This document shows, one piece after another, positions 10,670 through 59,380 of a stretch of 64,000 nt of DNA. Source of the stretch: Rothia nasimurium (GTDB taxonomy: Bacteria; Actinomycetota; Actinomycetes; Actinomycetales; Micrococcaceae). Every line of letters starts with the position of its first letter. Position 1 is the first letter of the stretch. The notes below the pieces were generated by a model. The model searched no databases and was not told where the DNA came from. It saw only the letters and a program-made list of their open reading frames with translations. A program made the translations under genes and the position numbers. The stretch lies in assembly GCF_014217215.1 (NCBI RefSeq), contig NZ_CP056080.1, positions 744,001 through 808,000 on the forward strand, in the 5' to 3' direction.

Positions 10670-10752
10670 GCGAGCGGTTCACCGCGCGCGGTGAAGTAAG
10701 AGCGATCGAATGGGAAGCTGTGAGCAAAGCGAACTCCATTTACCTCGCGCGA
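10620..10752 (+). repeat. Repeat-rich 3' region of ispH with palindrome
   Basis: The end of ispH and the following 80 nt contain a perfect 18-bp palindrome TTCACCGCGCGCGGTGAA (about 10679-10696) and an imperfect direct repeat: GCGAT..TTGGGAGG..GGAGCGAAGC near 10627-10648 against GCGAT..ATGGGAAG..GAGCAAAGCGAAC near 10701-10736. The second unit, GTGAGCAAAGCGAAC, closely matches the GTGAGC..AGCGAACC terminal hairpin of the dispersed structured element described elsewhere, but the conserved GGGGCTGGCATGAA strand is missing. It may be a decayed relative. Confidence 0.4.
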
Positions 10753-10768
10753 AGAATTTCCCTATAAG

Positions 10769-10794
10769 AAAAGGCCCCCGCACGGGGGCCTTTT
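10769..10794 (+). terminator. Terminator between ispH and the convergent permease gene
   Basis: Stem GGCCCCC/GGGGGCC with a 4-nt loop, flanked by AAAA and TTTT, so it can act in both directions. It lies between convergent genes. Confidence 0.85.
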
Positions 10795-10807
10795 CCTGTG
10801 GGGCTGG

Positions 10808-22663: not shown

Positions 22664-22679
22664 AACCAACATCACTTAC

Positions 22680-22790
22680 GCGGTGGGTATATCCCTGCCG
22701 CCTGCTGACCCTCTCCCAGCTCGCGCTGGGGCGCTCGCTGGGATTCATGCCAGCCCCAAGCCAGCAGGCTTTCAGGGATATACCCACCGC
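22680..22790 (-). repeat. Structured dispersed element, copy D1
   Basis: Reads on the minus strand. The outer arms, 22680-22697 and 22773-22790, are perfectly complementary over 18 bp (GCGGTGGGTATATCCCTG and its complement). The core at 22700-22769 has an inner stem GCCTGCTG/CAGCAGGC, the conserved strand GGGGCTGGCATGAAT, and a terminal hairpin CCCA-GC-GA-GCGC-CCCA-GCGC-GA-GC-TGGG with tandem GA/GA. It begins 17 nt after the tpx stop. Confidence 0.85.
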
Positions 22791-22815
22791 TGTGTGCAGG
22801 GGCTGGGCGCAGCTA

Positions 22816-22923
22816 GGTAGGGGCGGGCATATCATAAGCCGATTGGATGGGGCTGGCGTGAATCGCACGCGAGCTTGCGAGCCTGCGAGAGGATCGATCG
22901 GCGAGGATATGCCCGCCCCTACC
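22816..22923 (+). repeat. Structured dispersed element, copy D2
   Basis: Reads on the plus strand, head to head with copy D1 and 25 nt from it. The outer arms, 22816-22833 and 22906-22923, pair perfectly over 18 bp (GGTAGGGGCGGGCATATC and its complement). The core at 22838-22902 has the inner stem GCCGAT/ATCGGC, the variant strand GGGGCTGGCGTGAAT, and the hairpin CGCA-C-GC-GA-GC-TT-GC-GA-GC-C-TGCG. It ends 8 nt before the azlD stop codon. Confidence 0.85.
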
Positions 22924-22931
22924 ATTTGTCT

Positions 22932-23258
22932 CTAGAGCACCCAGTTAGCAAGTACCACGCAGGTTGCTGTGCCCACGATGAGGGAGAGCGCCAGGTTCTT
23001 CCGCCACAGGTGGGTAGCAACAGTTACCACAGCCCCTGCCAGGTAGGGCAGGGCTGTCTCGCGGGAAGAGTAGTCGATTTCTGCCATCACGTAGAAGCCT
23101 AGGCAGATGATGGCGCCCATGGGCAGCCAGGCTGCCAGGTTAGCAACCAGAGCTGAACTCTTGAGCACGGACTTCACACCGAAGGGAATCAGGCGCAGGG
23201 CGAAGGTGATGCCGGCGGCCAGGAAAATAGCGGAAAGAATGTAACCGGTGCTAGGCAC
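22932..23258 (-). CDS. azlD: AzlD-type branched-chain amino-acid exporter subunit
   Basis: A 108-residue protein with about four membrane segments, the usual AzlD size. The start is the GTG at 23258, with GGAGG 7 nt upstream; the longer frame begins with an implausible Pro-rich stretch. Its first 8 nt overlap the end of azlC (GTGCCTAG), so the pair is translationally coupled. AzlC and AzlD (like BrnF and BrnE in corynebacteria) jointly export branched-chain amino acids or methionine. No Lrp-type regulator gene lies next to it. Confidence 0.87.
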   Translation of the reverse strand: MPSTGYILSAIFLAAGITFALRLIPFGVKSVLKSSALVANLAAWLPMGAIICLGFYVMAEIDYSSRETALPYLAGAVVTVATHLWRKNLALSLIVGTATCVVLANWVL

Positions 23259-27903: not shown

Positions 27904-28103
27904 TGTCTCAGTAGTGAATGTCGTATAGAGGGTGTTGCGTTTCGCTGTGAGATTGATGTATATTGATTTCCACGATTCAGAAGACCAACGATAAGCCCTT
28001 TGACTTGTTGGCTGGCAACCGCCTGACGCAGACGGTGCCCTCAAAGGAAAATCGGTCGCCCACCAAAAGGTGCGGTGAAAGCGCGATTATGAGGAGGCCC
28101 GCT

Positions 28104-35889: not shown

Positions 35890-36001
35890 AGCTAACGTAG
35901 GGCGCCCCTGCAGCCGACTGGCTGGGGCTGGCATGAATTGGGCGAGCCCTCCAGGGCGAGACCAAGAAGGTTAGTCGGCCAAGGGGCGCCCTGCGGTAGC
36001 T
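35890..36001 (+). repeat. Structured dispersed element, copy A
   Basis: Reads on the plus strand. The outer arms start AGCTA (35890) and end TAGCT (36001) and pair over about 19 bp with one mismatch, including AGGGCGCCCCT/AGGGGCGCCCT. The core at 35913-35979 has the inner stem GCCGACT/AGTCGGC, the conserved GGGGCTGGCATGAAT and the hairpin TTGG-G-C-GA-GCCC-TCCA-GGGC-GA-G-A-CCAA with tandem GA/GA. It ends 3 nt before the pgi stop codon, in convergent 3' space. Confidence 0.85.
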
Positions 36002-39931: not shown

Positions 39932-40065
39932 GAAATGAACTGCCTTTAGGGAGGCGGACGCTCTCGGCGCCGACTGGCTGGGGCTGGCATGAATTGCCAG
40001 TGAGCGCCAGCGAACCGGCAAGAAGGTTAGTCGGCAAGAGAGCGTCCGCCTCCCTTATTCATTTC
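39932..40065 (+). repeat. Structured dispersed element, copy B
   Basis: Reads on the plus strand. The outermost arms GAAATGAA (39932-39939) and TTCATTTC (40058-40065) pair, then a perfect 17-bp stem GGGAGGCGGACGCTCTC (39949-39965) with 40038-40054. The core at 39969-40035 has the inner stem GCCGACT/AGTCGGC, the conserved GGGGCTGGCATGAAT and the hairpin TTGCC-A-G-T-GA-GC-GCCA-GC-GA-A-C-C-GGCAA. It begins at the first base after the transporter's stop codon, in the sense direction. Confidence 0.87.
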
Positions 40066-40208
40066 TAATGTGTCCCAGAAGATAGCGGCTAGTTTAGGTG
40101 CCGCCGGTATAATCAAACCGAAAGCCCTCTGCGCTGGTGCCGAAAATTCGACAGGTAAGCCGCGCACCGGCGTCCTTATCCCCAACATGTAAGCGAGATA
40201 CTTTCCGC

Positions 40209-46887: not shown

Positions 46888-46933
46888 AAGCCCCGGCGTC
46901 CTTACCTCGTTGGAGATAAGGACGCCGGGGCTT
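46888..46933. terminator. Bidirectional terminator between gltA and galE
   Basis: A perfect 17-bp stem AAGCCCCGGCGTCCTTA/TAAGGACGCCGGGGCTT with a 12-nt loop, between convergent genes. Confidence 0.85.
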
Positions 46934-46952
46934 GGCTTAAGGGGATATTCGG

Positions 46953-50426: not shown

Positions 50427-51383
50427 TTAGTTAGCGTGCAGCTCTGAGTTCAGTTCCACGGTGTTGTTGGCACGGGGTAGAACTTCGATAGCGCCGGTCA
50501 CGGAGTTGCGGCGGAAGAGCAGGTTATTGACGCCGGAGAGCTCTAGGGCCTTGACGACCTTGGGCTCAGAGCCAGGGTTGAGGACGGTCACGCGGGATCC
50601 GGCGGTGACGTACAGGCCAGCTTCAACTACGCAGTCATCACCCAGGGCAATGCCGATACCGGCTTCAGCGCCGAGCAGGGAGCGCTCGCCGATGGAGACA
50701 CGCTGGGTGCCGCCACCGGAGAGGGTGCCCATGGTTGAGGCGCCGCCGCCGATGTCGGTGCCGTTGCCAATGACAACGCCCTGGGAGATTCGGCCCTCGA
50801 CCATGGATTCGCCGAGGGTACCGGCGTTGAAGTTGACGAAGCCTTCGTGCATGACGGTAGTGCCGGAGGCCAGGTGGGCACCCAGGCGGACGCGGTCGGC
50901 GTCGCCGATACGAACACCAGCGGGCACGACGTAGTCGATCATGCGGGGGAACTTGTCCACGTGGGTGACGACCAGGGCGCCGCGGCGACGCAGCTTCAGT
51001 GAGACGGTGTTGAATTCGCTAGCCAGCACTGGGCCGAAGTTGGTCCAGGCAACGTTGGCGAGAGCACCAAAGAGACCGTCGAGGTTGATGGTGTTGGGGG
51101 CAACCAGGGTGTGGGAGAGCAGGTGCAGGCGCAGGTAGGCGTCCGCTGCATTGGCGGGGGCCTCGTCGAGGTTGATGGTGACGTTGACCAGCTCACGCAC
51201 AACGTTGCGGTCTTCGTCGGCTTCGACCAGGGCTTCGAGGTCGGCTGCTACGGAGTCGTCGGGGGTTTCGGTGAGGGCGGGGGCGGGGTACCAGACATCG
51301 AGTACGGTGCCTTCGTTCTCGCCGGAGGCGACGACGGTGGCCAGACCCAGGCCGGATGCTACACGGGTATTGTTTTCAGTCAT
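50427..51383 (-). CDS. dapD: Tetrahydrodipicolinate N-succinyltransferase
   Basis: A 318-residue enzyme of the succinylase branch of lysine/diaminopimelate synthesis. It has the length and sequence of the actinobacterial DapD type (Rv1201c-like): an N-terminal domain, then a left-handed parallel beta-helix of hexapeptide repeats (about residues 150-270, with [35 protein letters not shown] and [14 protein letters not shown]). It is divergent from dapE with a 59-nt gap, a standard actinobacterial arrangement that suits joint control. Confidence 0.95.
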
Positions 51384-51430
51384 GCCTACCAGTCTACGGA
51401 ATCAGGCGGGTGCGGGGCGCTATCTGCTTG

Positions 51431-51436
51431 TATCGT
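51431..51436 (+). promoter_or_regulatory. Putative -10 box (TATCGT) for dapE
   Basis: TATCGT ends 6 nt before the ATG at 51443 with no ribosome site between (leaderless arrangement). It lies in the dapD-dapE divergent gap. Confidence 0.4.
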
Positions 51437-51442
51437 GGAACT

Positions 51443-52591
51443 ATGACCAAGAACCTTACCCTCGCCCAGGCCGCTGAGTTTGCTCAGGTGGGCCCCGGCG
51501 TCCTGAACCTAACCCAGCCCGTTGAAGATCTCACTGCTGATCTGCTCAATATTTATTCTGTTTCTGGCGCCGAGGTGCGCCTGGCGGACGCCGTGCAGGC
51601 GGCCCTTGAGGGTACCGGCGGCTTAGAGATAACCCGCGACGGCGACGCCATCATCGCCCGCACTAACCTGGGCCGGGATACCCGCATTGTGCTGGCAGGC
51701 CACCTAGATACGGTGCCCCTGCCCCGTACCGAGGGCTCACGAGGTACCGTACCTGCTTCTTGGTCTGAGGAAGCGGGGGAGCGGGTCCTCTACGGCCGCG
51801 GCGCCGTGGACATGAAGGGCGGGGTTGCCGTGCAGCTAGCCCTAGCTGCCCGCTTGAAGGAGCCCCGCTACGATATCACCTACGTCTTTTATGACAATGA
51901 AGAAGTTGCATCAGAGCTCTCAGGGCTTGCCCGCCTGATGCGCAACCACCGGGAGAAGCTGACCGACGCGGCCTTCGCCGTGCTCCTGGAACCCACCGAC
52001 GGCACCATCGAAGGCGGCTGCAACGGCACCATCCGCTTCTGGATTCGCACCTCGGGCGTCGCTGCCCATTCGGGTCGCGCATGGAAGGGCATCAACGCTA
52101 TCCACAAGATGGCGGACGTGCTGGGGCGCCTTGCTGCCTACCAGCCTGCCACCTATGAGGTTGAGGGCCTGGCCTACCGCGAGGGGCTCAACGCCGTGCA
52201 GATTTCAGGCGGGGTTGCTGGGAACGTGATTCCCGATGACGCGGGCGTCCACATCAACTACCGTTTTGCCCCCAATAAGACCCTGGACGAAGCCGTCGCG
52301 CATCTGCACGAGGTTTTTGAAGGCTACGAGCTGGATTTCGTGGACCTGTCATCAGCGGCCCGCCCCGGCCTGGAGGCTCCGCTGTCTAGGTCACTGATTG
52401 AGTCGGTTGGGCAGGCTCCTAAGCCTAAGTACGGGTGGACGGACGTTGCCCGCTTCAGCGAAATCGGCATTCCCGCCGTAAACTTTGGGCCCGGTGACGC
52501 CCTGCTGGCCCATACCGATAACGAACACGTTAAAGTCTCTGAGGTGCGGGCCTGCTATACGGCGCTGGAAAGCTGGCTGACGGCGTCCTAA
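51443..52591 (+). CDS. dapE: Succinyl-diaminopimelate desuccinylase
   Basis: A 382-residue M20-family metallohydrolase that cleaves N-succinyl-LL-diaminopimelate to LL-diaminopimelate and succinate. Metal-site motifs are LAGHLDTVPLP (near residue 90), GRGAVDMKGGVA with the bridging Asp, and FYDNEEVASELSG with the catalytic Glu. GVAAHSGRAWKGINAIHK is the dimerisation-domain His motif. The start is the ATG at 51443; the upstream in-frame ATG at 51356 lies inside divergent dapD. A palindromic repeat follows the stop. Confidence 0.94.
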   Translation: MTKNLTLAQAAEFAQVGPGVLNLTQPVEDLTADLLNIYSVSGAEVRLADAVQAALEGTGGLEITRDGDAIIARTNLGRDTRIVLAGHLDTVPLPRTEGSRGTVPASWSEEAGERVLYGRGAVDMKGGVAVQLALAARLKEPRYDITYVFYDNEEVASELSGLARLMRNHREKLTDAAFAVLLEPTDGTIEGGCNGTIRFWIRTSGVAAHSGRAWKGINAIHKMADVLGRLAAYQPATYEVEGLAYREGLNAVQISGGVAGNVIPDDAGVHINYRFAPNKTLDEAVAHLHEVFEGYELDFVDLSSAARPGLEAPLSRSLIESVGQAPKPKYGWTDVARFSEIGIPAVNFGPGDALLAHTDNEHVKVSEVRACYTALESWLTAS

Positions 52592-52597
52592 CCCCAC

Positions 52598-52667
52598 AAA
52601 GGGACCACGAAACTTCAAAGGGACCGCATAATATGCGGTCCCTTCAAAATTTTCAGGTCCCCTTGGG
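52598..52667. repeat. Second palindrome family, copy 1
   Basis: Between the convergent dapE and gluD genes. Outer arms AAGGGACC/GGTCCCCTT enclose an inner perfect 12-bp hairpin AAGGGACCGCAT/ATGCGGTCCCTT (52618-52629 with 52633-52644) flanked by A+T-rich arms (AACTTC, CAAAATTTT). It is nearly the reverse complement of 59310-59380. It could act as a bidirectional terminator, but the conservation of about 70 bp between two unrelated loci indicates a repeat family. Confidence 0.85.
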
Positions 52668-52688
52668 TAAGTGCCGCAGGCGCGGATG

Positions 52689-53609
52689 CTAGTGCTTGGG
52701 GATCTTGAACATCAGCTCGGTCTTGGGGCGGGCTTCGTCCACTTCACCGGGCACACCGTCGGCGTGCTTGATCTCTACGTCGGAGCGGGAGCTCATGTAC
52801 TTAGCGAGCCACTCGGCAAAGAGGGTCAGGGCGAAGTTGATCACCACGAAGATGAGGGCTGCCAGCAGGAGCATCTGCAAGATATTGCCCTCGCCAGAGC
52901 CGAAGCGGCGGGCAGCGGCCAGCAGCTCTGGGTAGGAGATGATGTAGCCCAGGGCGGTGTCCTTGAGAATAACCACGAACTGCGAGAGCAGCGAGGGCAT
53001 CATGGCGGTCAGAGCCTGGGGTACCAGAATCAGGGTCAGAACCTTCCAAGGAGTCAGGCCGATAGCCAGACCGGCTTCACCCTGGCCCTTGGGCAGTTGC
53101 TGTACACCGGAGCGCAGAAGCTCAGCGATGACCGAGCCGTTGTAGAGGGTCAGGCCCAGAACCACGGCTATAAAGGGTAGCTGTGAGGGGGCAAAGAGGT
53201 TGAGCTTTCCCAAAAAGAGCCAGAAGAAGATCATCATAATCAGCACGGGAACGGCGCGGAAGAACTCCACGATCACGGTGCCGAAGGCTCGCACAGCCTT
53301 ATTGGGTGAGAGACGTGCCAGGCCGAAGAAGAGACCGAAAGCCACCGAGGTAACCACAGAAATCAGGGCAGCTGAGAGGGTCTTCCAGAGGGCGGGCAGG
53401 ATGTAGTTGGCCCAGAGGTTACCCGAGAAGAGGGAGGTCCACTTATCGGCTTCCAGCTGGCCCTGGCGGTTCATCACCATCATGACGTAGGCAAAGCCTG
53501 CTGCCAGGAGCACAAGAGCCACGATGTTGAAGATGCGGGTTCGGGCGCGGGCCTTGGGGCCGGGTACGTCAAAGAGTACCGAGGTTGAGGTCATACGCTT
53601 CTTGCTCAT
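52689..53609 (-). CDS. gluD: Glutamate ABC transporter permease GluD
   Basis: A 306-residue polar amino-acid permease with an N-terminal membrane anchor (about residues 28-48) and five further membrane segments. The EAA loop is seen in GQGEAGLAIGLTPWKVLTLILVPQALTAMMPSL. It is the last gene of a gluABCD-type operon and overlaps gluC by 4 nt. With GluC it forms the membrane channel for glutamate uptake. The C-terminal tail is hydrophilic. Confidence 0.9.
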   Translation of the reverse strand: MSKKRMTSTSVLFDVPGPKARARTRIFNIVALVLLAAGFAYVMMVMNRQGQLEADKWTSLFSGNLWANYILPALWKTLSAALISVVTSVAFGLFFGLARLSPNKAVRAFGTVIVEFFRAVPVLIMMIFFWLFLGKLNLFAPSQLPFIAVVLGLTLYNGSVIAELLRSGVQQLPKGQGEAGLAIGLTPWKVLTLILVPQALTAMMPSLLSQFVVILKDTALGYIISYPELLAAARRFGSGEGNILQMLLLAALIFVVINFALTLFAEWLAKYMSSRSDVEIKHADGVPGEVDEARPKTELMFKIPKH

Positions 53610-54289
53610 CGCTTCACCGCCAGTTTACGAGAGGCCCAGGTGGTTAGCAGGCCGATGGGGACAACAATAATCACAAAGCCCATGGCGAAGACGAAGAAGA
53701 TCATGAAGATGAGGTCTGAGTTGAACTCAATCATGGACTTCATCATGCCTGAGGCCTCAGCGACTGAGGCTACGGTGGCTACGGTGGTGTTCTTGGCTAG
53801 CGCAATCAGGGTGTTGCCCAGCGGGGTGATGGAGCCGCGCAGAGCCTGCGGGAAAATCACGTAGCGGGCGGTGGGCAGGAAGCCCAGGCCGATGGCGCGG
53901 GCCGCTTCAGCCTGGCCGATGGGCACAGTATTGACGCCGGAGCGGATGGCCTCACAGACGAAGGCCGCGTGGTAGATGGCAAGAACGATAACGGCGTAGA
54001 TAAAGAAGTTCCACTCAAAGCTGGTTGCTAGTGAGAGCTGGAACTGGGTCCACACGCCCAGGATTGCCAGAGTCATCAGAATGGTCAGCGGGGTGTTGCG
54101 GACCAGGTGCACGTAGGCGGTGCCCGCCCAACGTAGGGAGGGCACAGGCGAGATACGCATAAGTGCCAGCAGGGAGCCGAGGACGAATGATCCGATGGCT
54201 GCCCAGAAGGTTAGCTGGATATTGGTCCAGAAGGCACCGATGACGTCGTAGGTGGCAAAGAGCGTGGAGAGCTGTTCAGAGAACGACAT
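53606..54289 (-). CDS. gluC: Glutamate ABC transporter permease GluC
   Basis: A 227-residue permease with five membrane segments and the EAA loop GQAEAARAIGLGFLPTARYVIFPQALRGSITPLGN. The sequence and gene order match GluC of the corynebacterial gluABCD system. Its ATG is 59 nt after gluB; its end overlaps the start of gluD by 4 nt, coupling the two permeases. Confidence 0.9.
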   Translation of the reverse strand: MSFSEQLSTLFATYDVIGAFWTNIQLTFWAAIGSFVLGSLLALMRISPVPSLRWAGTAYVHLVRNTPLTILMTLAILGVWTQFQLSLATSFEWNFFIYAVIVLAIYHAAFVCEAIRSGVNTVPIGQAEAARAIGLGFLPTARYVIFPQALRGSITPLGNTLIALAKNTTVATVASVAEASGMMKSMIEFNSDLIFMIFFVFAMGFVIIVVPIGLLTTWASRKLAVKR

Positions 54290-54348
54290 GAAAGCCTCCG
54301 ATGGTTGAAAGATTGTGGTGTGGTGAAGGTGCGCTGGGCGTTGCCGTC

Positions 54349-55197
54349 TTATTTGGCGTCAACGGTGGCACAGGCGTCGGTGAGGACGGGCGGGTTCAGC
54401 TCGGCGTTGTAGGTGTAGTTAGCGGCACCTACGTTCTTTTTGATGGCTTCTTCCCAGGCGCCGGTTTCGACCATCTTGTTGATAGCTGCGTTGATGGCGG
54501 CGCACTTGTCGGAGCCCTTGGGCAGACCAACACCGTAGTTTTCGGTGGAGAAGGTGTTGCCAACGAGCTTGAGCTCGCCCTGGTTGGCCTTGGTAGAGGC
54601 TAGACCCGCCAGGATGATGTCGTCGGTGGTCACAGCATCGACCATACCGGCGTTGAGGGCGACAACACAGTCAGAGTAGGAGTTCTGCTGAACCAGCTGG
54701 ACCTCTGATGAGTACTTGTCCTGGATCTTCTTTGCACTGGTTGAGCCGGTGACGGAGCACAGATTCTTCCCGGCAAGAGATTCGGGGCCGGTGATGTCGG
54801 TGTTCTCTGCCTGGACCAGCAGGTCCTGGCCAGCGACGAAGTAGGGGCCAGCGAAGTCAACGGTCTTGAGTCGCTTTTCGGTGATGGAGTAGGTCGCAAA
54901 AATCATGTCTACCTGGTTGTTGGTGAGCATGTTTTCGCGGTTAGCGCTGGGGGCTTCGACCCATTCGATCTGGTCTTCGGAGTAGCCGAGTTCAGCTGCA
55001 ACGTAGCGGGCTACGTCGGTGTCGAAGCCGGTGTAGTCGCGTCCGTCCTGGTAGCCCAGGCCGGGCTGGTCGTACTTGATACCGATGCGGATGGTGTCTT
55101 CGCTGCCGGTGGCGGAGCAACCGGAGAGCGCGAGGACGCCGGTGGCGAGCAGGGCGGCGCAGGCTGCGACCTTTGCTTTGGCGCGGGAGAGATTCAT
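54349..55197 (-). CDS. gluB: Glutamate-binding lipoprotein GluB
   Basis: A 282-residue family 3 solute-binding protein. The signal peptide ends at the lipobox LALSGC, anchoring it outside the membrane. The body has typical features: IRIGIKYDQPGLGYQDG at the start, the FDTDVARYVAAELG helix, a MIFATYSITEKRLKTVDFAGPY binding segment and a conserved Cys pair likely forming a disulfide (NLCSVTG...SDCVVAL). It captures glutamate for the GluC/GluD channel. Confidence 0.92.
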   Translation of the reverse strand: MNLSRAKAKVAACAALLATGVLALSGCSATGSEDTIRIGIKYDQPGLGYQDGRDYTGFDTDVARYVAAELGYSEDQIEWVEAPSANRENMLTNNQVDMIFATYSITEKRLKTVDFAGPYFVAGQDLLVQAENTDITGPESLAGKNLCSVTGSTSAKKIQDKYSSEVQLVQQNSYSDCVVALNAGMVDAVTTDDIILAGLASTKANQGELKLVGNTFSTENYGVGLPKGSDKCAAINAAINKMVETGAWEEAIKKNVGAANYTYNAELNPPVLTDACATVDAK

Positions 55198-55209
55198 GGC
55201 TGGCCGTCC

Positions 55210-55953
55210 TTAGTGACCCAGGATCTTACCCAGGAAGTCCTTGGCGCGGTCTGACTGGGGGTTGGTGAAGAACTGGTCGGGGGTGGCTTCTTCGACGATT
55301 TCGCCGTCGGCCAGGAAGACGATACGGTCTGCTGCCTTGCGGGCGAAGCCCATTTCGTGGGTTACCACGATCATGGTCATGCCTTCGCGGGCGAGGGAGA
55401 CCATGGTGTCGAGTACTTCGTTGACCATTTCGGGGTCAAGGGCGCTGGTGGGCTCGTCGAAGAGCATGACCTTGGGCTTCATGGCGAGGGCGCGGGCGAT
55501 AGCGACGCGCTGCTGCTGTCCGCCGGAGAGCTGGGCGGGCATCTTGGAAGCCTGGTTATCGACGCCAACCTTCTTGAGCAGGCTCATGGCCAGCTCTTCA
55601 GATTCGGTCTTGCCCATGCCGCGTACCTTGCGGGGGCCTAGAGTGACGTTTTCGAGGATGGTCTTGTGGGCGAAGAGGTTGAAGGACTGGAAGACCATGC
55701 CGACTTCTGCGCGCAGGTTGGCGAGTTCCTTACCTTCTTCAGGCAGTTTTTTGCCGTCGATAGTGATGGTGCCGTCGGTGATGGTTTCAAGACGGTTGAT
55801 GGTGCGGCAGAGGGTTGACTTGCCGGAGCCTGAAGGGCCGAGGAGGACGACAACCTCGCCCTTGCCGATGGAAAGGTTGATGTCCTTGAGGACGTGGTTC
55901 TCACCGTAGTGCTTGTTCACGTGGGTGAGCTGAACCAGTGCGTCAGTAGTCAC
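55210..55953 (-). CDS. gluA: Glutamate ABC transporter ATPase GluA
   Basis: A 247-residue ABC ATPase with Walker [10 protein letters not shown] near residue 38, signature [15 protein letters not shown] near residue 144, Walker [15 protein letters not shown] and the switch His in VVTHEMGF. It powers glutamate import and is the first gene of the operon, 12 nt before gluB. The upstream gap (55954-56157) holds the operon promoter. Confidence 0.94.
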
Positions 55954-56054
55954 TGGGCTTCCTCTCTTGTGGTGGATTCAGTGCGTGCGCCGGTAACATT
56001 GAGGTGCTGTGGCACAAACCAAATGGTGTATGTGCCCTACCTTACGCCCTGCAG

Positions 56055-56070
56055 GTAAACAACTTGTTAC
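56055..56070. promoter_or_regulatory. Imperfect palindrome upstream of gluA
   Basis: GTAAACAACTTGTTAC is a near-palindrome about 100 nt upstream of gluA, in the gap divergent from the DivIVA-like gene. It may be a regulator site; no specific regulator is implied. Confidence 0.25.
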
Positions 56071-56157
56071 ACGGGGTGTCGTGTTTTTGCAGTCATATTT
56101 GTTGGGTTGAGTTGAGTGGTGCTGGGCGAGAGGGCTTGGCTCCTGCGGGAGGACGGT

Positions 56158-56514
56158 ATGAATTATCTACTGGTTACGGTGACTTTTGTGGTGCTGGCGG
56201 CGGTGATGGCCGGGTGCGCGGTGTTGGGTACTGACCGGTTGATTCCAGGGCGGAAGGCTATCGATGCGGTCAGCAAGGACGGCCTAGCGCTGGTTCCTGC
56301 CGCTGAGCCGCCCCTGATTCTTTCGGATCGCCCGGGTACGGACGAGCTGGAGCGGGTTCGTTTTGCCACCTCGGCCCTGGGCTATAACCGCGATGAGGTC
56401 GATGGGGTGCTCGCTAAGGTGGTTGCCGAGAACAGCCGCCTGCGGGCAGAGCTTGAGGCCCTGCGCGGTGCTCGGGGCCAGGACGCCGCTACCGACCTTC
56501 GCGGGGAGGGCTAG
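56158..56514 (+). CDS. Small membrane protein with DivIVA-type motif
   Basis: A 118-residue protein: one N-terminal membrane helix (residues 2-24), a short linker, then DELERVRFATSALGYNRDEVDGVLAKVVAENSRLRAELEAL (near residues 62-102), a DivIVA-like motif with a coiled-coil start. DivIVA-type proteins (Wag31 in actinobacteria) recruit envelope synthesis to curved membranes; this small one may be an accessory. The ATG at 56158 follows GGGAGGACGGT. The mannosyltransferase gene begins 4 nt after its stop. Confidence 0.7.
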   Translation: MNYLLVTVTFVVLAAVMAGCAVLGTDRLIPGRKAIDAVSKDGLALVPAAEPPLILSDRPGTDELERVRFATSALGYNRDEVDGVLAKVVAENSRLRAELEALRGARGQDAATDLRGEG

Positions 56515-56518
56515 GGAA

Positions 56519-57838
56519 GTGGGGCGTCCGTCCGCACCACAGCGCAGCGGGGTGCTTGACCGCACCGCTGCGACCCTGAGCGTGAGCGCCAGTCGGGGCC
56601 TGCTGTTCTTCACGAGCCTGCCCATCGGCCTGCGGGTAGCCCTGGTCTATGCCGCAAGTCGGCTCTGGGGCTGGTTTATTTTCTCAACCGTGGGTCTGCA
56701 CCAGACCTTTAGCCCCTGGAAAAATACCTCAATGGGCTACCTGGAGTTTGTCACTATTTGGGACGCTGACTGGTATGCCAAGATAGCCGCTGGCGGCTAC
56801 CCTGCGGTTCTGCCCGTGGACGCCAACGGTCACGTTGCCCAAAATGAGTGGGCCTTCTACCCCCTCTACCCCCTGATTAGCGGAGCCATGGCGAGTGTGA
56901 CCGGGCTGAGCTATCAGACGGTTGCCCCTACCGTTTCCCTGCTGTTTGGCTTTGGGGCAGCCTGGTTTATCTACCGGCTCTTTGAAACCAGCCTACAGGT
57001 GCGCGGGGCAGCTACCGGGGGCGCTACTACCCACCGGGGCACTGAGCTAGAGACAACCGCCCTGTGGGCAACCGCCGCCGTCAGCTTCTGCGCCGTTGCA
57101 CCGATTCTGCAAACCGGCTATGCCGAAGCAACCGGCCTCTTCTTCCTGGCCTGGGTCCTCTATTGGCTGGTGCAGCAACGCTATGTGCTTCTGCTTTTTC
57201 CGGCCCTTGGCGCGGCCCTGTCCCGTCCTGTAGGGGTGCCCCTGGGAGCCGTAGTTGGAATTTGGTGGTTCGTGTGCTGGGTTCAGCAGGCCCGTGCTGA
57301 GAACCTGCTGAGCGCCTTAAAAGCAACCGCCCCGCAGCTGGCCTCTGCCCTCACCGTGTGTGCTTTCGCCTTTATCCACCCGGCCATCGCATGGGCATCC
57401 ACCGGGCGTATCGACGCCTACACCGCTACCGAGGCCGCGTGGAGAGCTGGCGGGGAGCACGTGCTGCCCTTTATGCCCTGGTACACCCAGAGCCAGCTCT
57501 ACCTGGGGCAGGTGCTGGGCCCCCTCGTCCTTATCCTGCTACTGGGCGCCTACCTGCTGGCCCTACTGGCTCCCGTGACCCGGCAGGTACTCCACCCGGC
57601 GCTCATCACCTGGTGTGTTGCCTACGCGGTGTATATGCTAGCCTTCTTCAACCCGCAGTCCTCCACCTTCCGCCTGCTGCTGCCCCTCTTCCCGCTCCTG
57701 CTGCCCCTCGTGGCCCTATCCGCTTCGCGGGCCTACCGCTGGCTGCTGATTCTCAGCGGAGCAACCCTGCAATTTGGCTGGGTCGGCTGGCTCTGGCACT
57801 GGAAGCAGCTACCCGGCGGCGGAGACTACCCGCCCTAA
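56519..57838 (+). CDS. Integral-membrane mannosyltransferase-like protein
   Basis: A 439-residue protein with about ten membrane segments. WDADWYAKIAAGGYP near residue 80 is the acidic first extracytoplasmic loop typical of GT-C / PIG-V-like mannosyltransferases, and the NEWAFYPLYPLISGAMA segment follows as in that family. A polyprenyl-phosphate mannose donor and an envelope glycolipid or glycoprotein acceptor are likely (inference). The start is the GTG at 56519, 4 nt after the upstream stop, with GGGGAGG upstream. Confidence 0.75.
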   Translation: MGRPSAPQRSGVLDRTAATLSVSASRGLLFFTSLPIGLRVALVYAASRLWGWFIFSTVGLHQTFSPWKNTSMGYLEFVTIWDADWYAKIAAGGYPAVLPVDANGHVAQNEWAFYPLYPLISGAMASVTGLSYQTVAPTVSLLFGFGAAWFIYRLFETSLQVRGAATGGATTHRGTELETTALWATAAVSFCAVAPILQTGYAEATGLFFLAWVLYWLVQQRYVLLLFPALGAALSRPVGVPLGAVVGIWWFVCWVQQARAENLLSALKATAPQLASALTVCAFAFIHPAIAWASTGRIDAYTATEAAWRAGGEHVLPFMPWYTQSQLYLGQVLGPLVLILLLGAYLLALLAPVTRQVLHPALITWCVAYAVYMLAFFNPQSSTFRLLLPLFPLLLPLVALSASRAYRWLLILSGATLQFGWVGWLWHWKQLPGGGDYPP

Positions 57839-57960
57839 ACCTGTAAGTTTCCACCTAAAAACGCCAGAAGTGAGCCACTAAGCACTATGATTAAAAGAAG
57901 GTGAGACCGGCAATAGAAGCCAAGAAACCGCAGACCAACCCTCGTTGAAGGAGAACCAAG

Positions 57961-58122
57961 ATGGCAGCTCAGAAACCACGCACCGGCGACGGCCCCCTCG
58001 AAATCGTGCGCGAAGGGCGCAGCATCGTCATGCGCATTCCCGTTGAAGGTGGCGGCCGCCTGGTTCTTGATATCACCGAAGAAGAAGTCGAGGCAATCCG
58101 CAAGTGCGTTGAAAACGTCTAG
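57961..58122 (+). CDS. DUF3117-family small protein
   Basis: A 53-residue protein, MAAQKPRTGDGPLEIVREGR..., nearly invariant in actinobacteria (Rv1211-like). It ends DITEEEVEAIRKCVENV. Its function is unknown to me; it is predicted to be a small cytoplasmic beta/alpha protein. AAGGAG lies about 7 nt upstream of the ATG. It sits next to the O-methyltransferase gene as in mycobacterial neighbourhoods. Confidence 0.92.
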   Translation: MAAQKPRTGDGPLEIVREGRSIVMRIPVEGGGRLVLDITEEEVEAIRKCVENV

Positions 58123-58140
58123 GCTTCGGCTCTGAGCCCG

Positions 58141-58180
58141 GCCCCTGCTCCGAACCACACAGGTTTGGGGCGGGGGCTTT
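58141..58180 (+). terminator. Terminator after the DUF3117 gene
   Basis: A 16-bp stem GCCCCTGCTCCGAACC/GGTTTGGGGCGGGGGC with three wobble pairs and a 5-nt loop, followed by TTT. Confidence 0.75.
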
Positions 58181-58820
58181 AGCGTTTGTAGACCAGGTAG
58201 AGACCCTCACCCGCGTGTACGAGTGAGACAAAAACATCGGCGGTACAGGCCGCCACCTCGTGTAAGACAGAGCGTACCGAAACGGTCACGGCATCGCGGG
58301 CTGTAGGGTTCGCAACAGCGCCGCCCACCAGCGGGTCATGCAGAATCAGGAGCCCTCCAGGTTCTAGGAGGGCCAGCGTATCGTAGACCAGCTGTTCAGC
58401 CAGCTGGCTGCCGGCGTCAATAAAGGCCAGGTCGTAGGAGGCTTCTGAGAGGCGGGGGAGTACCTCGGCAGCATTGCCGGTGATGACGCGCACCCGGTGG
58501 CTCTTATCAAGACCGGCAGCTGCCAGTAGAGTCCGGGTCGCCTGGCAACGGGTGGCATCGATATCGATGGCGGTGAGCGCCGCACCGGGGGCCAAGCCTG
58601 TGAGCAGGGCAGCCGTAGCAACGCCGGCTCCGCAGCCGATTTCTACAGCGTGTTGGGCCTTGGTAGCGGCCGCGAGCACCGTAAGCAGGGAAGCTACCGA
58701 CGGGGCGACGGGGGCGGCGTCCAACCGCTCGGCCCCAGCCCGGGCAGAAGCCACCGCAGGAGCCTCCAACGGGAACTCTTCAGCATAAACCCAGCTTCGA
58801 GCCTGTTCCTGAGTATTCAC
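58179..58820 (-). CDS. SAM-dependent O-methyltransferase
   Basis: A 213-residue class I methyltransferase of the caffeoyl-CoA/catechol O-methyltransferase family (Rv1220c-like). The SAM site is VEIGCGAGVATAALL near residue 60; TAIDID follows at strand 2, and DLAFIDAGSQ is the metal-binding region. The substrate is unknown. In mycobacteria the sigE-rseA-htrA genes lie between its homologue and tatB; here tatB follows directly. Confidence 0.87.
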   Translation of the reverse strand: MNTQEQARSWVYAEEFPLEAPAVASARAGAERLDAAPVAPSVASLLTVLAAATKAQHAVEIGCGAGVATAALLTGLAPGAALTAIDIDATRCQATRTLLAAAGLDKSHRVRVITGNAAEVLPRLSEASYDLAFIDAGSQLAEQLVYDTLALLEPGGLLILHDPLVGGAVANPTARDAVTVSVRSVLHEVAACTADVFVSLVHAGEGLYLVYKR

Positions 58821-58918
58821 CTAGTACTTCACCTTCACATGAGTGCACGCGGGAATGATTCTGAAAACATCTTAATCAACCCCACTCGTTTTATGGGCTA
58901 ACACTCGGGCTGAGCTGG

Positions 58919-58924
58919 TAATCT
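58919..58924 (+). promoter_or_regulatory. Putative -10 box (TAATCT) for tatB
   Basis: TAATCT ends 6 nt before the GTG at 58931 (leaderless arrangement). Confidence 0.45.
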
Positions 58925-58930
58925 CTTTGT

Positions 58931-59296
58931 GTGTTTGGAATTAGCGGCCTCGAATTTATCGTTCTAGCGATTCTGGTGTTTGTTGTCATCGGGCCAGAAC
59001 GCATGCCCGAATATGCCCAGCAGCTCAAAGACTTTATCAAGTGGGTTCGCCGTATGGCCTTTGAGGCTAAGGACGACCTCAAAGAAACTCTTGGCCCCGA
59101 CCTGGGCGATATCAACTGGCGCCAGTATGACCCCCGCCAGTACGATCCCCGCGTCATTGTGCGTGAGGCTTTTGCTGAGGACGACGAAGAGCGCCGCAAG
59201 GAACTTGAAGAAAAGGCGGCATCTGCACCGGCTCCCTCTGTGAGTGTGCGCCTGCCCCGCGGCGCCTGGGCTCCCTTCGATACCGAGGCCACCTAA
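58931..59296 (+). CDS. tatB: Twin-arginine translocase subunit TatB
   Basis: A 121-residue protein. The opening MFGISGLEFIVLAILVFVVIGPERMPEYAQQLKDFIKWVRRM has the TatB membrane helix, the hinge Gly-Pro and an amphipathic helix; an acidic charged tail with DPRQYDPR repeats follows. TatB acts with TatC in recognising folded proteins carrying twin-arginine signals. The GTG start is supported by homology and by the -10 box. A palindromic repeat follows, then convergent mrp. Confidence 0.92.
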   Translation: MFGISGLEFIVLAILVFVVIGPERMPEYAQQLKDFIKWVRRMAFEAKDDLKETLGPDLGDINWRQYDPRQYDPRVIVREAFAEDDEERRKELEEKAASAPAPSVSVRLPRGAWAPFDTEAT

Positions 59297-59309
59297 ACTC
59301 TTTCTCTCG

Positions 59310-59380
59310 CCAAGGGGACCTGATTTTCAAAAAAGAACCGCATAATATGCGGTTCTTTTGAAGTTTTGTGGTCCCCTTGG
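59310..59380. repeat. Second palindrome family, copy 2
   Basis: Between the convergent tatB and mrp genes. Outer arms CCAAGGGGACC/GGTCCCCTTGG (11 bp, perfect) and an inner hairpin AAAAGAACCGCAT/ATGCGGTTCTTTT (13 bp, perfect) make the whole 71 bp nearly palindromic. Compared with copy 1 the inner stem changes GGGACCGCAT to AGAACCGCAT with matching changes on the other arm, so the base pairing is preserved. Confidence 0.87.

What the first reader, a model, noticed from the sequence alone, without database searches (positions are those of the whole stretch)
52598..59380. Second palindromic repeat family, two copies in opposite orientation
52598-52667 and 59310-59380 are about 70-bp near-palindromes. 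They share the arms AAGGGGACC/GGTCCCCTT, the A+T arms AACTTCAAA and TTTTCA, and the inner hairpin ACCGCATAATATGCGGT, in reverse-complement relation. The inner stem differs by paired changes (GGGACC to AGAACC with GGTCCC to GGTTCT), so pairing is maintained. Both sit between convergent stop codons (dapE/gluD and tatB/mrp). This looks like a mobile or duplicated bidirectional terminator.
Basis: seen in the sequence. Interest (0 to 1): 0.65.

Follow-up and report, generated by a model that had tools for sequence, protein, structure and literature searches.

The report
Dispersed swappable hairpin terminators in Rothia
The two near-palindromes are members of a 69-letter DNA element, repeated at the ends of genes in bacteria of the Rothia nasimurium group, that looks like a two-way stop signal for transcription; related genomes often carry a second, differently spelled 69-letter element at the very same places.

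Summary
52597-52665 and 59311-59379 are two of 18 copies, each 69 bp, in this Rothia nasimurium-group genome (67 bits and up; next match 27.6). 17 of 18 own copies, and 62 of 63 scored copies in named relatives, lie within about 40 nt of a stop codon; 42 of those 63 are between convergent genes. Anatomy: sequence-conserved 10-bp outer arms, an A+T-rich middle, and an inner hairpin between A and T tracts, as expected of a two-way intrinsic terminator. New: of 16 slots that hold this element (family A) here, 9 hold a second 69-bp nested palindrome (family B) in at least one of eight relatives; at the best slot the flanks agree up to about 10 bp from the element. Four control slots with ordinary terminators held neither (0 of 28 spacers). 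No transposase with these ends, isolated arm or target duplication was found, and no Y1 (RAYT) gene in this genome. Best reading: a SPRITE-like, MITE-like family of dispersed bidirectional terminators, with in-place exchange. Termination and mode of movement are inferred, not shown. The paired changes could also come from palindrome template switching.

The parts
52597..52665 (-). family A element, copy 1 (69 bp), between a dapE-like M20 peptidase gene and an amino-acid ABC permease gene
   Evidence: R1 match 82.1 bits on -, 76.5 on +; alignment A2
52597..52606 (.). outer arm, left (CAAAGGGACC)
   Evidence: columns 1-10 of A2
52616..52646 (.). inner hairpin with A tract and T tract
   Evidence: columns 20-50 of A2; fold
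52656..52665 (.). outer arm, right (GGTCCCCTTG)
   Evidence: columns 60-69 of A2
59311..59379 (+). family A element, copy 2 (69 bp), between a tatB-like ORF and mrp; present at the orthologous place in G000, G002, G011, G012, G014, G026, G027 and G028
   Evidence: R1 76.9 bits on +, 67.1 on -
59311..59320 (.). outer arm, left (CAAGGGGACC)
59330..59360 (.). inner hairpin with A tract and T tract; the terminator scan lists 59331-59359 on + only
59370..59379 (.). outer arm, right (GGTCCCCTTG)
51356..52591 (+). M20 peptidase (dapE-like); its stop is 5 nt before copy 1
   Evidence: PF01546
52689..53609 (-). ABC amino-acid permease; its stop is 23 nt from copy 1
   Evidence: PF00528
59387..60520 (-). 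Mrp/NUBPL P-loop ATPase; its stop is 7 nt from copy 2
   Evidence: PF10609

Best explanation
A family of 69-bp dispersed elements whose inner hairpin, with an A tract before and a T tract after the stem on either strand, ends transcription from both sides of a spacer. The elements are copied or moved as units to gene 3' ends, where a terminator is useful or at least harmless, and within the R. nasimurium complex one family (A) and its distant sister (B) replace each other in place at the same slots. Shown: copy number, fixed length, position, predicted hairpin, A or B at orthologous slots. Inferred: termination, that the outer arms are recognition ends rather than parts of the terminator, and that spread is by a trans-acting, unidentified machinery.
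For: 18 copies, each 69 bp, sharply separated from background. 17 of 18 own copies lie -1 to 38 nt from the stop codon of a neighbouring gene; of 70 distinct copies in 64 named loci 42 are convergent, 20 codirectional, 1 divergent, 7 at a locus edge and unscored, against 21, 97 and 64 element-free spacers (Fisher p 2e-16 for convergent; orthologous copies are counted more than once). Both strands fold strongly. Other hairpins, most like ordinary bidirectional terminators, stand at the dapE and mrp slots in most relatives without the element. Inner-stem pairs show double changes (columns 18, 19, 22, 24, 26, 32; also 11, 12 and 14 in the middle) whereas outer pairs 2-10 show none; in 20 of 23 B copies the conserved outer 7-nt ends do not pair with each other. 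B lies at 9 of 16 A slots in at least one relative, 30 of 124 readable cells, against 0 of 28 control spacers. The one copy between divergent genes is decayed: mismatched inner stem in G000, inner hairpin missing in G027, element absent in G011.
Against: No expression data. The terminator scan of 51-61 kb found 10 sites against 8.0 in shuffles and listed copy 2 on one strand only and copy 1 not at all. Decay is not confined to the divergent copy: at terminator slots G027 has only a remnant at L007 and G002 has lost the right half of the dapE copy, so that argument is weak. No clean empty site was found; where an element is absent the spacer usually differs as well. Ordinary terminators also turn over in this complex: kept in 8 of 8, 7 of 7, 6 of 7 and 0 of 6 readable relatives at four control slots. 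Site-level contrast with controls is weak (9 of 16 against 0 of 4, p 0.09). The number of doubly changed pairs in A is no more than in column shuffles (143 of 500 reach it).
Confidence: 0.68

Rival explanations
1. Terminators of common descent: an ancestral element family sat at these slots, diverged by concerted evolution into A and B in two lineages, and later recombination between Rothia species reshuffled the alleles. No present-day mobility is needed. (It shares the terminator function with the best explanation and differs only on movement.)
For: A and B share length, centre and a weak profile similarity beyond pair-preserving permutations (p 0.0004; 0.008 when permuted within segments); they share slots; flanks of A and B alleles at one slot are alike (p 0.007 left, 0.0004 right); at the ctaA/ctaB locus A-nuclease-A and B-nuclease-B alleles differ as whole blocks.
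Against: Coding flanks 60-230 nt from the element do not group by element type: at slot L018 the B genome G002 is 99% identical to the A genome G000, at L029 the B genome G028 is 98%, so the exchanged tracts look short. Both families occur in the same genomes.
Confidence: 0.3
2. REP/REPIN element moved by a RAYT (Y1) transposase.
For: Intergenic palindrome, many copies, mostly 3' of genes; most B copies have GTAG at one end.
Against: No Y1_Tnp (PF01797) match in the window's genome, 3 of 35 genus genomes have one; A has no GTAG or CGTC end; 69 bp exceeds the 20-40 bp given for REPs (abstract of PMC3733652).
Confidence: 0.03
3. Pairs of DNA-uptake words in inverted orientation, as in Neisseria, which double as terminators.
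For: Inverted repeats at gene ends; specific to a species group.
Against: All 23 exact MAAGGGGACC in the genome are ends of the 18 copies, none stands alone; the reversed control word occurs 29 times. Uptake words occur in hundreds to thousands (abstract of PMC2346458 in the listing).
Confidence: 0.01
4. Cruciform or protein-binding site (nucleoid, replication, barrier between convergent transcription) rather than terminator.
For: Outer arms are conserved in sequence, not by double changes; long symmetric DNA.
Against: Placement just after stop codons, codirectional pairs included, and near absence from divergent spacers is what a terminator predicts; ordinary terminators take the same slots.
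Confidence: 0.1

Closest known systems
[quoted passage not shown]
   Same: Dispersed family of 30 copies, hairpin like an intrinsic terminator, close to CDS 3' ends, enriched between convergent genes, no comparable empty site or target duplication established (passages of PMC3049150).
   Different: Other phylum; sequence relation not tested. A and B have a nested outer arm, a fixed 69 bp, near symmetry on both strands, and stand in for each other at the same slots; SPRITE is described as an 18-bp duplex followed by a uridine-rich tract.
REP / REPIN / BIME
   Same: Repeated intergenic palindromes, mostly downstream of genes between unidirectional and convergent ORFs (abstract of PMC3733652).
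   Different: No Y1/RAYT in this genome, larger, no GTAG/CGTC tag in A.
MITEs such as RUP, BOX, ERIC, Correia elements
   Same: Short, non-coding, dispersed, terminal inverted repeats, able to fold when transcribed (passages of PMC10969869; partly recalled).
   Different: No parent transposase and no target duplication established here; very short and palindromic over the whole length.
Neisserial/Pasteurellacean DUS/USS terminator pairs
   Same: Inverted repeats that form terminators at gene ends, with lineage dialects (recalled; listing, passage).
   Different: No isolated words.

Membership tests
bidirectional intrinsic terminator | G+C stem followed by a T tract on both strands | tested here: met
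   AAAAGGGACCGCAT...ATGCGGTCCCTTTT; by inspection and folding. The rule-based scan listed only copy 2, on one strand
bidirectional intrinsic terminator | lies just 3' of genes | tested here: met
   17 of 18; 62 of 63 scored
bidirectional intrinsic terminator | stops transcription in vivo or in vitro | not testable with these tools
   no RNA data
MITE | dispersed non-coding copies with terminal inverted repeats | tested here: met
MITE | target-site duplication at a clean empty site | tested here: inconclusive
   spacers of 16 slots in 8 relatives read by eye or scored; no clean empty site, so no duplication could be established
MITE | parent transposon with the same ends in the genome | tested here: not met
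   all 23 exact ends belong to the 18 copies; diverged ends, or a parent in another genome, are not excluded
REP/REPIN | GTAG or CGTC tag at one end | tested here: not met
   family A ends CAAGGGGACC; B has GTAG within GGTAGGTACC
REP/REPIN | RAYT (Y1) transposase in the genome | tested here: not met
   0 matches in G000; 3 of 35 genus genomes
DUS/USS | short word abundant outside the palindromes | tested here: not met
SPRITE | sequence relation to pneumococcal SPRITE | not tested
   only passages read
Rfam families | match over gathering score | tested here: not met
   the only match in the window is a SAM-IV riboswitch at 27974-28089; weak miRNA hits to copy 1 lie far below their cut-off

The most novel reading that the evidence does not exclude
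A and B are ends and by-products of a selfish cassette: at the ctaA/ctaB locus an AbiEi/REase-like gene is flanked by two A copies in three relatives (G012, G014, G026) and a 50%-identical gene is flanked by two B copies in three others (G002, G011, G018), the B copies in inverted orientation with the GGTAGGTACC ends outermost, while the window's genome keeps a single A. The nuclease type goes with the element type. On this reading the nuclease cuts at or near terminators and copies its own element type into slots held by the other, which would make in-place exchange of A and B a homing-like conversion of transcription terminators.
Probability: 0.1. Interest if true: 0.85.

Novelty: new variant of a known kind. 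Interest (0 to 1): 0.52.

Why it matters
If the elements terminate, this is a natural series of interchangeable two-way terminator cassettes at matched positions in very close genomes, so that the effect of swapping a terminator can be read by comparing strains. If they are mobile, it shows short elements spreading because they are useful or harmless as terminators, in an actinobacterial group for which I saw no such family in print (full-text searches; I saw listings, plus passages or abstracts of PMC3733652, PMC10969869 and PMC3049150).

Tried and rejected
Local duplication or chance: rejected by 18 copies. RAYT/REP: rejected for this genome. Uptake words: rejected. Phage or plasmid origin: copy 1 has no match in phages or plasmids, and exact patterns for A and for a B core have none in viral contigs. 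Insertion into the stem of an older hairpin: flanks of family A are C-rich on the left (50% C) and G-rich on the right (48% G), but left and right flanks of one copy are no more complementary than shuffled pairs (A: 18 copies, p 0.37; B: 28 sites, p 0.64). tRNA near nine of the own copies, the divergent one included: none. Pairs of copies about 0.8-1.7 kb apart as composite transposons: genes between them look ordinary or unknown (metE-, nhaA-, CorA-, HipA- and DHDPS-like by look, one unknown); only the ctaA/ctaB case holds a nuclease-like gene, with both Pfam hits below the curated cut-off. Of the 30 loci brought in by the search with that protein (one search lists many more matches, not opened), 7 have A or B nearby: six are this locus, the seventh (G005, L345) is near a contig end and its locus was not checked.

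Weak points of my counts: cells are not independent (related genomes; in G028 the L006 and L018 cells read one and the same rearranged B); the dapE copy of G002 is counted as A there but lacks its right half; 4 of 128 cells were not found; the hypergeometric values rest on an assumed 28 B copies in G018 and are not used. Only 16 of the 18 own copies were taken as slots: L010 (in a duplicated gene next to L008) and L014 (mrp, done) were left out. Matches count both strands, and A and B cross-match at roughly 20-50 bits, so they are not copy numbers; their row lists were capped. In one search, 7 of 70 distinct copies at locus edges were left out and 1 copy overlapped a called gene. Of the 30 control loci, L387 and L394 could not be read (short flank) and were dropped; two of the six control sites searched brought no loci. 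Models R1 and R2 over all 30 control loci match only the known mrp copies, more than 1 kb from the control spacer.

Full report
OBSERVATION. The window lies in a 2.53-Mb genome (G000) of the Rothia nasimurium group; the group is inferred from the named relatives, all Rothia. The two near-palindromes are at 52597-52665 and 59311-59379. Each is 69 bp, centred on column 35 of alignment A2. Both strands of both fold with z-scores of -7.1 to -9.8.

FAMILY A. A BLAST of copy 1 and a covariance model from 18 copies agree: 18 copies in the genome, each a full 69-column match at 67-95 bits on both strands; the next match has 27.6 bits. Consensus: CAAGGGGACC TGAAAACTT AAAAGGGACCGCATAATATGCGGTCCCTTTT AGGTTTTGC GGTCCCCTTG. 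In the genus, 19 of 35 genomes have a match at E 0.01, eight of them with 20 or more (both strands counted). With copy 1 as a BLAST query, 48 of 59 genomes had no match at E 0.001, among them all 24 outside the genus. An exact-pattern scan of 84,980 species genomes found 64 stretches, in eight assemblies named R. nasimurium, R. nasisuis, Candidatus Rothia avicola and Rothia sp..

POSITION. With a codon-usage gene caller trained on the window, 9 own copies lie between convergent genes, 8 between codirectional genes, 1 between divergent genes; 17 of 18 lie -1 to 38 nt from the stop codon of a neighbouring gene. In the 64 named loci 70 distinct copies were found: 42 convergent, 20 codirectional, 1 divergent, 7 at locus edges; 62 of the 63 scored lie -4 to 37 nt from a stop codon. 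Element-free spacers of 60 bp or more in the same loci were 21, 97 and 64 (Fisher p 2e-16 for convergent). Orthologous copies are counted more than once there.

ANATOMY. On A2 the outer pairs 2-10 are nearly always formed and never doubly changed, so they look conserved as sequence. In the middle, pairs 11, 12 and 14-16 are open in half or more of the copies, pair 13 is always formed. The inner stem (pairs 17-32) is mostly formed and carries double changes at columns 18, 19, 22, 24, 26 and 32; the middle has single cells of double change at 11, 12 and 14. Against shuffled columns the covariation score is high (4 of 500 shuffles reach it), but the number of pairs with double changes is not (143 of 500). 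Palindromes can also change both arms in one template-switch event, so covariation here does not prove selection on RNA. At the mrp slot the G-C to A-T change in the inner stem is seen in G000 only, of eight genomes; at slot L015 the G012 copy is a perfect palindrome while the G000 copy is not.

ORTHOLOGOUS SLOTS. At mrp/tatB G000, G002, G011, G012, G014, G026, G027 and G028 all carry A; G005 has a B-type element there, G018 a bare short spacer, more distant species mostly other hairpins. At dapE/permease A is present in G000, G026 and, without its right half, G002; an ordinary hairpin stands there in G011, G012, G014, G027, G028 and G018. For 16 own slots in eight relatives: of 128 cells 62 are A, 30 B, 2 rearranged B (one and the same element), 26 neither, 4 not found, and one each truncated A, A remnant, A with an insertion in its loop, and an A-like element. 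The only copy between divergent genes is decayed in G000, lacks its inner hairpin in G027 and is absent from the others read; but losses occur at terminator slots too (L007 in G027, dapE in G002).

FAMILY B. B is GGTAGGTACC ATCTAAATC AGAAAAACCCACC AACTA GGTGGGTTTTTCT GATTTAGAT GGTCTTTTCT, in 3 of 23 aligned copies ending GGTACC instead; again 69 bp with the same centre. Its 24 middle and inner pairs are formed in 96.2% of cells, 7 pairs with double changes, 0 of 500 shuffles as high. 14 of 35 genus genomes have a match at E 1e-4; at least six copies above 77 bits in G000. Of 23 B copies in 20 fetched stretches 12 are convergent, 10 codirectional, 1 at an edge; 22 lie -4 to 31 nt from a stop codon, one 326 nt. 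B can supply the stop codon of the gene before it (slot L021: TAG inside GGTAGG). A and B profiles are more alike than pair-preserving permutations (p 0.0004; 0.008 within segments), which suggests a distant common origin or a shared constraint.

IN-PLACE EXCHANGE. B stands at 9 of 16 A slots in at least one relative; G018 alone has B at all nine. Noncoding flanks of A and B alleles at one slot are more alike than across slots (left 7 slots p 0.007, right 9 slots p 0.0004); the signal comes mainly from L018 and L008, on the right also L021 and L029, on the left also L004, while the other slots are near background. At L018 the left flank is identical up to 9-13 nt from the element and the right flank from 5-12 nt on, with A in one allele and B in the other; coding sequence 60-230 nt away is 99% identical between the A genome G000 and the B genome G002. 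Control: at four slots with ordinary terminators none of 28 readable relatives' spacers holds A or B; the same terminator is kept in 8 of 8, 7 of 7, 6 of 7 and 0 of 6. So terminators turn over in general here, but B turns up at A slots (30 of 124 against 0 of 28, p 0.001, cells not independent; 9 of 16 against 0 of 4 sites, p 0.09).

HOW IT MIGHT MOVE. No machinery was found. All 23 exact MAAGGGGACC in the genome are ends of the 18 copies (reversed control word: 29 hits), so no isolated arm and no longer element with the same exact ends exists here. No Y1 transposase in G000, one each in G002, G012 and G028. Left and right flanks are not mutually complementary beyond composition. A lead: at ctaA/ctaB (gene names by look) G012, G014 and G026 have A-gene-A, 1166 bp apart, the gene matching REase_MTES_1575 and AbiEi_4 weakly (below cut-offs); G002, G011 and G018 have B-gene-B, 1137-1138 bp apart, with a 50%-identical gene and the B copies inverted; G000 has one A. 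It is one locus; the gene belongs to a multigene family found in 30 of 35 genus genomes, most of them with few or no A and B.

KNOWN KINDS. SPRITE of pneumococcus is closest in working (passages of PMC3049150): 30 copies, terminator-like, near 3' ends of convergent genes, no comparable empty site. REPs (abstract and passages of PMC3733652) and MITEs (passages of PMC10969869) share the dispersal, but tested features are missing or undecided. I saw no report of this family in Rothia in the searches (listings only).

VERDICT. A real, group-specific family of dispersed hairpin elements in terminator position, with a sister family that takes its place at the same slots. Terminator function is likely, mobility plausible, mechanism open.

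Noticed in passing
window 35900-35991, 39956-40047, and inside the spacer 22664-23250 (two more by eye): Another repeat family: a core around GGCTGGGGCTGGCATGAATT enclosed by outer arms that differ from copy to copy yet look complementary within each copy. Only weak miRNA hits in Rfam at one copy.
   Followed up: partly
window 27974-28089 (+): SAM-IV riboswitch, 61.4 bits.
   Followed up: no
window 40156-40186 and 46909-46939: Inverted pair of 31 nt, 87% complementary; the second lies in an ordinary terminator that is kept in 7 of 7 readable relatives.
   Followed up: partly
relatives' spacers orthologous to window 10670-10807 (L372, L376, L377, L385, L391): A further short repeat (GGTAAAATCGCGAAGCGACCGG and variants) varies in the stretch before the conserved terminator.
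   Followed up: no
L262 (G012:C15, near contig end): Foreign sequence, by look the end of an insertion sequence, interrupts the loop of an A copy; its first bases hold CAAGGGG as A's end does, perhaps by chance.
   Followed up: no
L212, L213, L214, L215, L216 (dapE slot without A): By eye a long nested palindrome (CTTCTTGGGCTGTG...CACAGCC(C/T)AAGAA within GTGCAG/CTGCAC) next to the ordinary terminator, possibly a third family.
   Followed up: no
L302, L300, L305, L310, L312 and L190: Some B copies seem to have an extra tandem outer half-arm of about 20 bp (by eye), hinting at modular arms.
   Followed up: no
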